Origin: Methylotuvimicrobium alcaliphilum 20Z
GTDB lineage: Bacteria > Pseudomonadota > Gammaproteobacteria > Methylococcales > Methylomonadaceae
Direction of reading: 5' to 3'
Assembly: GCF_000968535.2 (NCBI RefSeq)
Contig: NC_016112.1
Coordinates: 186,001 to 250,000 of the forward strand
Length of the DNA stretch: 64,000 nucleotides
The notes below the pieces were generated by a model. The model saw nothing but the letters and a program-made list of their open reading frames with translations. It was not told where the DNA came from and ran no database searches. The position numbers and the translations under genes were made by a program. Of this stretch, positions 396-2,293 are shown piece after piece; the first letter of the stretch is position 1, and the number at the start of each line of letters is the position of its first letter.

Positions 396-685
396 AGTTT
401 ATGGAAAAAATAATAGATTTATTTCTATTGTATGCGAAAACTGTGCGCTCTTTCATTGCTATGATTCTAATCTTATATAATTCAATGATTTAGTTCATAG
501 GCAGTACATTTTATTAGGCTCTGCATACGGTAAAAAATGCAAGCTCCCATCAATACCGGAAACACTTAAAAATACAAAGTGATTTGTAGGCTACGCTGCG
601 TGTACCTGATGTCGGCGCAGAGTGCTTCTATACCCGTCGTAGATCAAAATTCGGCGCCTGGGTGTCCGCTAAAGGACGCCGTGAA

Positions 686-750
686 CCCAGCACCTAAATT
701 ATCCAAGATAGTTAACCATAGCCAATGGACTATGGAATTTAGGTGCTGGG
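686..750. mobile_element. 65-bp hairpin miniature element with TGAA target duplication
   Basis: Perfect 15-bp inverted repeats, CCCAGCACCTAAATT (686-700) and AATTTAGGTGCTGGG (736-750), bound a 35-bp centre. The element is flanked on both sides by TGAA (682-685 and 751-754). Removing it with one TGAA restores the R1 consensus GCCGTGAATACGTCC. It encodes nothing and needs a transposase in trans; none in this window has matching ends. Confidence 0.8.
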
Positions 751-808
751 TGAATACGTCCATGTAGATACTCTGTTTAAAATCAAGTTAAAAATAGGCA
801 TTTTTCTG

Positions 809-1843
809 CTATTCAGCGATTGACGGAATTGCATAAAAACGCGTGTTATCGAATGGTTTATCATGCTTGAGCATGCCGTGAATCGCATGTAACAATTTAC
901 GCATGACCGCACAACAGGCTTGCAACGGTAATTTACCCATATCCAGGAGATGTTGGTAATACGCCTTAATATGGCGATCATGCTGCACAGCGCTCCAGAC
1001 AGGCATATACAGGGCGGCGCGAATCTGGCTGTTACCGGCCTTGGATATACGCGTTTTTTTGTGGACACTCGTGCCGGAATCAAAAGCTCTTGGATCGAGC
1101 CCCGCAAACTTGACCCACTCACGGTGCGACATATCCGCAGGCAAAATCAGTAGTTCTCCCATGAGGGCAATCGCACTGGTATTGGCAATACCCTTAATGC
1201 TCGTGAACAAAACTAATGCTCGACTGAGTTCCGGATGTTTTTCGATCAATGCCAAGGCGCCAGCCGTTAACTGATCGATACGCTTATCTAATTGATCGAT
1301 GGCTGCTTGTGCATCTTTTAGCACGGCTTTGGGTGTTTCAACTGTTGCGCTTAAGGCATGCAATTGATTCTTTGCTGCTGTTTTTTGATCGGTTAGTGCA
1401 TTAATACGGCGTGAGAAACAACGTAAAGCGATCTTTTCATTCGAAGGACGGGACCAAGGCGCAAAATCCATCCGTTCGGCATACACCGCCAGAGTATTCG
1501 CGTCCACATCATCTGTTTTACTATTGTTCATCAACACTTTAGCAAAGTTATGAGAGACCTTGGGATTGATGACCATTACCTTGACGCCGGCATCATGGAG
1601 CGCAACGGCTAAATCGAAATGATAACTGCCGGTGGCTTCCATACACACGATAATGCCGGACAATTTGTTCAGTTTCTTGGCCATCCGGGCATGATCAGCT
1701 GGGGTATTGGAGAACTTCTGCGGATTGAAAGGTTTGCCATTTTTGCGCACCACCAAAACCAGTTCTTTAGATCCTACATCGACGCCAGCGAAGATACGGG
1801 TTTGTGTGTCAAGTGAAGCGCTGTTAATTTGTTGATCTGCCAT
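809..1843 (-). CDS. IS110-family transposase (DEDD recombinase)
   Basis: The 344-residue protein has the RuvC-like DEDD domain at its N-terminus (FAGVDVGSKELVLVV, with the first catalytic Asp). The C-terminal transposase_20 domain (AGLDPRAFDSGTSVHKKTRI followed by SKAGNSQIRAALY) carries the serine implicated in catalysis. Length and both domains are typical and the reading frame is intact, so it may be active. In this family the protein works with a bridge RNA encoded in the element's non-coding end; here the long non-coding end lies upstream (5') of the gene. Confidence 0.95.
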   Translation of the reverse strand: MADQQINSASLDTQTRIFAGVDVGSKELVLVVRKNGKPFNPQKFSNTPADHARMAKKLNKLSGIIVCMEATGSYHFDLAVALHDAGVKVMVINPKVSHNFAKVLMNNSKTDDVDANTLAVYAERMDFAPWSRPSNEKIALRCFSRRINALTDQKTAAKNQLHALSATVETPKAVLKDAQAAIDQLDKRIDQLTAGALALIEKHPELSRALVLFTSIKGIANTSAIALMGELLILPADMSHREWVKFAGLDPRAFDSGTSVHKKTRISKAGNSQIRAALYMPVWSAVQHDRHIKAYYQHLLDMGKLPLQACCAVMRKLLHAIHGMLKHDKPFDNTRFYAIPSIAE

Positions 1844-1884
1844 GTTTAATTGTTATTCTGTGATAAGGAAAGTAAACTAGTCAT

Positions 1885-2040
1885 TGGTTCCCGACCCTGC
1901 GTATGCACCTACCATCCTTGTGAATGCAGGCTCTAAGCCTCAGATACTCCGCGGTATAGGTGAATAGGGCGGGGGCCAATCTACATGACAGGCTCTGGTT
2001 TAATCCAGTCCTCAGGCTCAAGCGGCCTCCCAATGAACTC
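1885..2040 (-). ncRNA. Candidate IS110 bridge RNA in the transposase leader
   Basis: On the minus strand the leader can form two loops. In the first, GGGAGGCC pairs with GGCCCCC and a CUGG/CCAG hairpin caps it. Its 5' side contains GAGCCU (plus 2014-2019), identical to the left target half GAGC-CT. Its 3' side contains CAUGUAG (plus 1981-1987), complementary to the right half CTACATG. The second loop contains GAGUAUCU (plus 1942-1949), identical to the element end GAGTAT plus core CT, and CAUAC (plus 1901-1905), complementary to GTATG of the other end. The order target loop then donor loop is that described for IS621. The outer limits of the RNA are approximate. Confidence 0.65.
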
Positions 2041-2293
2041 GGTAAAGCTTAAAGTATTTCCTGGCTAAAATTCATTTAAATTAATCATACAAGGCTCTAT
2101 GCCAGCTCCAGCTGGCAAAGCCTTTATGAACGCCATGGATGGCGTGAATGTCGATTTTGCATTACGCCACGGATGGCGTGTATTAGGGCAATGCAGGAGC
2201 AATTGCCGAGGAGCGAAAATCGACCGGACACCCAGGCGCCTCCTCTGGCGCTGCCGAAATTTGAAGTGCGAAAGGTATATATCCGCAATACAA

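What the first reader, a model, noticed from the sequence alone, without database searches (positions are those of the whole stretch)
768..2093. IS110 leader encodes a bridge RNA whose guides match its own target and its own ends
Seen: the insertion lies in an R1 repeat with CT as the core (minus strand GGCATAGAGC-CT-ACATGGAC). The leader of the transposase has GAGCCU in the same sense as the left target half and, after a CUGG/CCAG hairpin, CAUGUAG antisense to the right half. Further on it has GAGUAUCU, equal to the left donor end with core, and CAUAC, antisense to the right donor end. Known: IS621-type bridge RNAs have a target loop then a donor loop, each with one sense and one antisense guide, and use a CT core. 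Four independent short matches in the right order and polarity are unlikely by chance. This is a candidate natural, repeat-directed bridge recombinase.
Basis: partly seen in the sequence, partly recalled or inferred. Interest (0 to 1): 0.88.

Follow-up and report, generated by a model that had tools for sequence, protein, structure and literature searches.

The report
Guide-RNA jumping gene targeting genomic repeats
A mobile element in a methane-eating bacterium carries its own guide RNA that sends it into one short repeat present almost 200 times in the genome, and several dead copies are broken at the very sequences that encode the guide, which may mean that the element sometimes mistakes its own guide gene for its target.

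Summary
Window 766-2093 (minus) is an IS110-group insertion sequence with an IS621-type bridge RNA in its leader. The transposase has the catalytic residues of IS621; the leader has a conserved two-loop RNA. Its left target guide tracks the target among relatives: 5.10 of 6 positions, 3.46 when shuffled, 0 of 5000 shuffles as good; the donor loop stays nearly fixed. One guide was misplaced: the right donor guide is AUUCACAAG (1917-1925). The target is a REP-like repeat whose 13-base core occurs 192 times. IS621 also targets REPs, so this is a new member of a known kind.

Not found in print by my searches: dead left-end copies. In the genus 6 of 11 break exactly at an internal CT joined to the right target half, mostly where the DNA encodes, or resembles, a left guide. 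IS621 has such a scar at its own target guide. Against: a second batch gave 0 of 11 exact joins, and short shared sequences could explain five of the six. Whether the recombinase makes these scars is open, about even.

The parts
766..2093 (-). IS110-group element, 1328 nt with the CT core at both ends
   Evidence: ends defined by 13 complete copies in the genus
809..1843 (-). transposase/recombinase, 344 aa; D22, E69, D111, D114 and S256 align with IS621 D11, E60, D102, D105, S241
   Evidence: Pfam DEDD_Tnp_IS110 and Transposase_20; phmmer to ISCro4 9t56 E 2.7e-43 and IS621 8wt6 E 3.9e-40; positions; IS621 numbering, matched to the printed alignment by my own count
1880..2050 (-). bridge RNA two-loop region (approximate limits)
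   Evidence: 32-leader alignment and consensus structure
2014..2021 (-). left target guide UUGAGCCU (core CT at 2014-2015)
   Evidence: register by alignment; tracks the left target in relatives
1981..1987 (-). right target guide CAUGUAG, antisense to CTACATG
   Evidence: tracking shown only for the two positions after CTAC (20 of 5000 shuffles)
1942..1949 (-). left donor guide GAGUAUCU, same sense as the left donor GAGTATCT
   Evidence: GAGUAUC in 32 of 32 aligned leaders; position
1917..1925 (-). right donor guide AUUCACAAG; AU..ACAAG pairs 7/7 with CTTGTAT
   Evidence: position; IS621 register
766..767 (-). right core CT, followed by the right target half ACATGGAC
2092..2093 (-). left core CT, preceded by the left target half GGCATAGAGC
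1990..1991 (-). CT of the structural GAGCCT next to the target-loop hairpin; break site of dead copies L185 and L186
1792..1793 (-). CT of CCGTATCT inside the transposase gene; break site of dead copy L180

Best explanation
The element is an IS110-group (IS621-type) insertion sequence. Its leader makes a bridge RNA. The first loop pairs with the two halves of a REP-like repeat, the second with the element's own joined ends, and the DEDD/serine recombinase exchanges strands at the shared CT. Shown: recombinase family and catalytic residues, conserved two-loop RNA, left-guide-to-target tracking, nearly fixed donor loop, repeat target. Inferred: that the RNA is made and binds the protein, that the circle junction (TTGATT, 17 bp, TATGAT) is its promoter, and that it works as IS621 does. 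Second, weaker layer (about 0.5, not covered by the confidence below): integrated copies are sometimes cut wrongly by the same machinery. DNA encoding the left guides copies the left half-sites, so it can recombine at CT with the right-end junction, delete the element's body and leave a dead left end.
For: Recombinase. Copies and ends. Guide-target tracking: first set 52 copies, 17 distinct guides, 5.28 of 6 against 3.18 shuffled; second set 34 copies that I picked, 4.94 against 3.89; 0 of 5000 shuffles as good in each. Structure: 31 predicted pairs, 9 with changes on both sides; target-loop outer stem a standard pair in all 224 cells, with G-C/A-U and C-G/U-A exchanges, and a bulged A in all 32 (IS621 also has a flipped-out A in its target loop). 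Repeat target. Dead copies: 6 of 11 exact CT joins in the genus, 0.16 expected; mean likeness of the 6 distinct break CTs to left target, left target guide or left donor is above that of random CTs (p 1.6e-4 over all 58 internal CTs, 0.011 over the 19 in the first 330 nt); apart from contig edges one right-end-only remnant in the genus, not CT-phased. E. coli IS621: a scar runs to its left target guide and joins ACGG, at a site that reads GACCT-ACGG without the element in another strain. Published off-targets of IS621: 87.2% have the CT core and 47.9% closely resemble target or donor (PMC11208160, passages).
Against: The single sequence does not fold better than its shuffles (z -0.30) and no Rfam family matches. 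One of the six non-core left-guide positions matches the repeat in none of the 13 complete copies, and the right target guide tracks only at the two positions after CTAC. For the dead copies: a second batch of 11 interior junctions gave no exact join. The guide-like sites are also the ones that share bases with other sequences: L183 and L180 share 8 and 6 bases with the right end, L187 and L185/L186 share 9 and 7 bases with the left half of an empty repeat, so of the six exact joins only L167 has nothing but CT in common. No expression or activity data were available.
Confidence: 0.92

Rival explanations
1. The dead left-end copies are ordinary deletions between short direct repeats (replication slippage), unrelated to the recombinase.
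For: L183 and L180 join at GAGTATCT (8) and GTATCT (6), also present at the right end. Remnants outside the genus mostly lack exact joins.
Against: L185, L186, L187 and L167 share only CT with the right end, yet join exactly to the right target half. The loss is one-sided: left ends remain, while the one right-end-only remnant away from contig edges in the genus is not CT-phased.
Confidence: 0.25
2. Scars at target-like sites arise by homologous recombination with an allele or another copy of the repeat that is empty, with one crossover in the short identity between guide DNA (or GAGCCT) and the left target.
For: L187 shares 9 bases and L185/L186 share 7 with the left half of a repeat. L187's guide reads CTCAAGCCT, which is also the left half of some repeats (L189), so a crossover anywhere in it would look the same. 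In E. coli the same site without the element is seen in other strains.
Against: The shared stretches are very short for homologous recombination. The seawater-strain scar keeps the IS621 linker G, so a crossover there must lie within TATCCGACCT. It does not explain L183, L180 or L167, nor L266 outside the genus.
Confidence: 0.2
3. Target choice is set by the protein or by the REP fold, and the guide matches are coincidence.
For: 49 of 52 distinct right flanks of relatives outside the genus begin CTAC, the reversed GTAG of REPs, so part of the specificity is invariant.
Against: Five of the six non-core left-guide positions match their own target more often than shuffled pairs, and the total is beyond all 5000 shuffles in both sets. 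A guide variant within the genus (CTCAAGCC) sits at TCAAGCCT in L167 and L184, though in L187 at ATAGAGCCT.
Confidence: 0.03

Closest known systems
IS621 (E. coli, IS110 group)
   Same: DEDD and serine residues; long 5' and short 3' non-coding ends; two-loop leader RNA; CT core; left donor guide ending AGUAUC and right donor guide of the AU(nn)nCAAG form; GUAG in the right target guide followed by AU; REP target
   Different: only moderately similar protein (phmmer E 3.9e-40); own repeat and guide UUGAGCCU; right target guide matches 7 bases (CTACATG) where IS621 uses four
ISCro4 (IS110 group, PDB 9t56)
   Same: closest solved recombinase by sequence
   Different: its RNA and target were not examined here
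ISPa11, ISPpu9, ISPpu10, ISRm19 (IS110-family members at REPs, PMC1525189, passages)
   Same: IS110 family, inserted in REPs
   Different: described before bridge RNAs were known; not compared by sequence here
IS1111-group elements and their seekRNAs (PMC11187229, passages)
   Same: RNA with matches to both target strands
   Different: long non-coding region downstream and subterminal inverted repeats; this element has the long region upstream

Membership tests
IS110 group, IS621 type | DEDD RuvC-like domain and Tnp domain with catalytic serine | tested here: met
IS110 group, IS621 type | long non-coding left end upstream of the gene, short right end | tested here: met
   248 nt before the start codon, 41 nt after the stop, cores not counted (coordinates)
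IS110 group, IS621 type | leader RNA with target loop then donor loop, conserved structure | tested here: met
   a single-sequence fold alone is not convincing
IS110 group, IS621 type | target guides track the target sites | tested here: met
   left guide strong, right guide weak
IS110 group, IS621 type | donor guides pair with the element's own ends, with the CT core included | tested here: met
   GAGUAUCU and AU..ACAAG by sequence
IS110 group, IS621 type | promoter rebuilt at the circle junction | tested here: inconclusive
   TTGATT, 17 bp, TATGAT across the two ends by reading; not assayed, no promoter scan was run
IS110 group, IS621 type | RNA bound by the recombinase and needed for recombination | not testable with these tools
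   needs a bench assay
REP (GTAG palindrome) | GTAG next to a palindrome, many copies, RAYT-type transposase in the genome | tested here: inconclusive
   by eye most of the 30 copies read (of 192) have a short palindrome followed by GAGCCTAC; five Y1_Tnp hits in the genome, not linked to this repeat

The most novel reading that the evidence does not exclude
Bridge-RNA elements injure themselves: because the left guides are sense copies of the left half-sites, guide DNA inside an integrated copy is recognised as target or donor and recombined at CT with the right-end junction, deleting the body and leaving dead left ends. This would be genomic evidence that the guided complex acts on integrated copies, and it would occur in IS621 itself.
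Probability: 0.48. Interest if true: 0.75.

Novelty: new member of a known kind. Interest (0 to 1): 0.5.

Why it matters
It adds a natural bridge-RNA element with about 190 exact target cores in its host, a 7-base right target match and a family of natural guide variants. If the dead-copy scars are made by the recombinase, they bear on a question PMC11208158 states as open (passage): whether excision is carried out by the recombinase-RNA complex. They would also point to a design hazard for bridge-recombinase tools: guide-encoding DNA is itself a half-site.

Tried and rejected
Rfam search of 500-2500 found nothing. The single-sequence fold was not better than shuffles. Tandem and echo sequences right of many relatives were suspected as a recombinase product. 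In G188 the 4 distinct occupied sites all have a CT at that distance and 5 of 16 empty sites do (my reading); left unexplained. A first look at the E. coli scar suggested a crossover upstream of the guide; the seawater-strain scar removed that reading. L264/L265 looked like gene-less leaders but are complete copies.

Rows dropped: 31 of 100 loci (29 without guide anchor, 2 without left end; some of the 100 are the same place fetched twice), and 69 rows reduced to 52 distinct sites. The second set was 34 leaders that I picked, not every leader held. In one search, 36 of 38 leaders were located, and 32 of those 36 entered the alignment (L263, L252, L238, L206 left out as broken or altered). Left out of the census: remnants at contig edges, with a nested element (L267, L330), duplicate loci (L177=L189, L334=L335), and loci without a readable left end (L207, L217=L253=L340, L220, L345). 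The census is by my own reading of the printed junctions. The cut-off of four matching bases behind '4 of 6 sites among 5 of 58' was chosen after seeing the scores; the score means do not need it.

No print of self-targeting or guide-site scars for IS110 elements turned up in nine searches of the held open-access library (listings only, plus an outline of one paper and passages of the five papers cited). Most subscription papers and bioRxiv preprints are not held there.

Full report
Observation. On the minus strand of window 766-2093 lies a 1328-nt element with CT at both ends. Left flank GGCATAGAGC-CT, left end TGTATGATTAA, right end AACAGAGTAT-CT, right flank ACATGGAC.

Gene. The 344-aa ORF matches Pfam DEDD_Tnp_IS110 and Transposase_20. 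Against solved structures the two hits at E <= 0.001 are ISCro4 (2.7e-43) and IS621 (3.9e-40); D22, E69, D111, D114 and S256 align with the catalytic residues that PMC11208158 names (the register to the chain numbering is my own count).

Copies. This genome has four complete copies; of six genomes searched in the genus four have complete copies, 13 in all. Two of these genomes are M. buryatense 5G and Methylomicrobium sp. wino1 by identical coordinates; the window's own species I recall as probably M. alcaliphilum, from no call. 13 of 13 sit at GAGC-CT / CT-ACATGG, in at least two kinds of repeat that share this core. The exact 13-mer occurs 192 times, control 0. Thirty were read: by eye most have a short palindrome before GAGCCTAC; CTAC reversed is GTAG, as at the start of many REPs listed in PMC2817692 (passages). 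Five Y1-transposase hits exist in the genome.

Relatives. The transposase was found at E <= 1e-60 in 38 of 301 genomes of the order, own genome included. Conserved ends (CT-TGTAT and GAGTAT-CT) let targets be read. Of 100 loci, 69 gave guide and left target, 52 distinct. Left target guide against left target: 5.28 of 6 non-core positions (3.18 shuffled; 17 distinct guides); in 34 further leaders 4.94 (3.89); all together 5.10 (3.46); 0 of 5000 shuffles as good each time. The right target guide tracks at the two positions after CTAC (20 of 5000), not further. The donor-loop segments barely vary.

RNA. In 32 leaders the RNAalifold consensus has 31 pairs, 9 with changes on both sides; its own pairing of the first stem differs from the one I then read. 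That stem, the outer stem of the target loop, read with motif anchors that favour it, is a standard pair in all 224 cells, with a G-C/A-U and a C-G/U-A exchange and a bulged A in all 32. The inner hairpin also shows compensatory changes (UGG/CCA, GGG/CCC, UGA/UCA). Against this, the single sequence folds no better than shuffles and Rfam has no match.

Correction of one guide. In IS621 the right donor guide is nine bases of which two flip out. Here that position reads AUUCACAAG, window 1917-1925; without the flipped pair it is AUACAAG, the exact antisense of CTTGTAT. The base after it, G, could pair with the C before the core, which is almost invariant among targets (0.99), as the handshake pairing of IS621 would want (inference). 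The two ends joined would read TTGATT, 17 bp, TATGAT, a promoter-like pair (by reading), as PMC11208158 describes for IS621 (passage).

Dead left ends. Searching the leader alone in the genus gave left ends without a gene. Of 11 distinct ones with an inner junction away from contig edges, six end exactly at an internal CT joined to the right target half: L187 at the left target guide, L185 and L186 at the second GAGCCT, L183 at the left donor guide, L180 at GTATCT inside the gene, L167 at GGACT. L184 (CACTT|ACATGG) could be a seventh with one substitution. L181, L172, L189 (=L177) and L190 do not join to the target. No two of them share flanks in hits over 330 bases, except L177 and L189. The six distinct break CTs (L184's included) resemble left target, left target guide or left donor more than random CTs do: p 1.6e-4 over all 58 internal CTs, 0.011 over the 19 in the first 330 nt. 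With a cut-off of four bases, chosen afterwards, 4 of the 6 are among 5 of 58 (p 1.7e-4; 0.017 within 330 nt). A right-end query gave complete copies, contig-edge pieces, the more distant relative in G005 and one right-end-only remnant, not CT-phased.

Outside the genus. In a first batch 2 of 10 interior junctions were exact (L266: AAGCCT|ACG; L262: at the target guide, CCCT|ATT), eight were not. In a second batch 0 of 11 were exact. Two of these (L326, L334) end one and two bases before the end of the core of the left target guide, and L336 is at the same place but too diverged to place exactly; 0.24 would be expected (p 0.0015 if all three count; about 0.02 for two, worked by hand). L329 ends in GGACT but joins CCCG. 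So the guide may be a break hot spot, but precise CT joins are shown mainly in the genus.

IS621 itself. Some part of the IS621 left end matches in 2224 of 5426 E. coli genomes, at least 80% of it in 1661. In the two records that I read (L289, L323), next to znuB, a left end stops at the CT of its own left target guide (GCCGTATCCGACCT in L323) and goes on with ACGGTTCGC; L322 and L325 have GCCTTATCCGACCT-ACGGTTCGC there without it. 685 of 5426 genomes hold at least 80% of the junction query; I take them as one inherited event, not checked one by one. One 33-nt right-end-only piece was also seen (L324).

Mechanism. By PMC11208158 (passage) excision would recombine the left-target/right-donor with the left-donor/right-target junction. 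The left guides are written in the same sense as the left half-sites, so their DNA mimics left half-sites in direct orientation; the right guides are antisense and do not. Recombination of such an internal half-site with the right-end junction deletes everything between and keeps the left end, which fits the one-sidedness seen. But the guide-like sites also carry the homology that rivals need: 8 and 6 bases with the right end (L183, L180), 9 and 7 bases with an empty repeat (L187; L185 and L186); of the six only L167 shares nothing but CT. One mechanism explains all six, two separate ones explain five. I put recombinase-made scars at about even.

Known or new. The element is a new member of the IS621-type IS110 group; REP targeting and guide-target covariation are published (PMC11208160, PMC1525189; passages read). 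No report of guide-site scars turned up in the searches listed in Tried and rejected.

Noticed in passing
L125 (G208:C31) and L048 (G211:C92): Left ends in tandem, phased on CT: five copies of TGTATGATTAAAACT(ACT) in L125 and two of TGTATATTAAAGACCT in L048.
   Followed up: partly
right flanks of relatives outside the genus: A second CT starting 6-8 bases after the core in 26 of 52 distinct flanks (4 to 12 in six later windows of equal size), CTAC there in 7, and exact tandem 7-8-mers in L036, L038, L069, L119. Unexplained.
   Followed up: partly
window 685-751 and other copies of the repeat: A palindromic insert CCCAGCACCTAAAT..ATTTAGGTGCTGGGTTCAC sits inside the target repeat right of the IS target, in 11 of 30 copies read.
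   Followed up: no
own genome: The target repeat seems oriented by chromosome region: of the first 100 places listed (of 192), those from 1.46 to 2.94 Mb are all forward, while 41 of 66 before 1.46 Mb are reverse (my count).
   Followed up: no
L004 (G000:C2:1438144): One complete copy has a changed right target guide (CAUGGAG instead of CAUGUAG) at an unchanged target.
   Followed up: no
L172 (G001:C1:357526): A left-end remnant runs near the second GAGCC motif into a GTAGGATGGG-type REP-like sequence.
   Followed up: no
window 1990-1995: A structural GAGCCU, present as GAGC in all 32 aligned leaders, happens to equal the left target of this element and so adds a second target-like site.
   Followed up: yes
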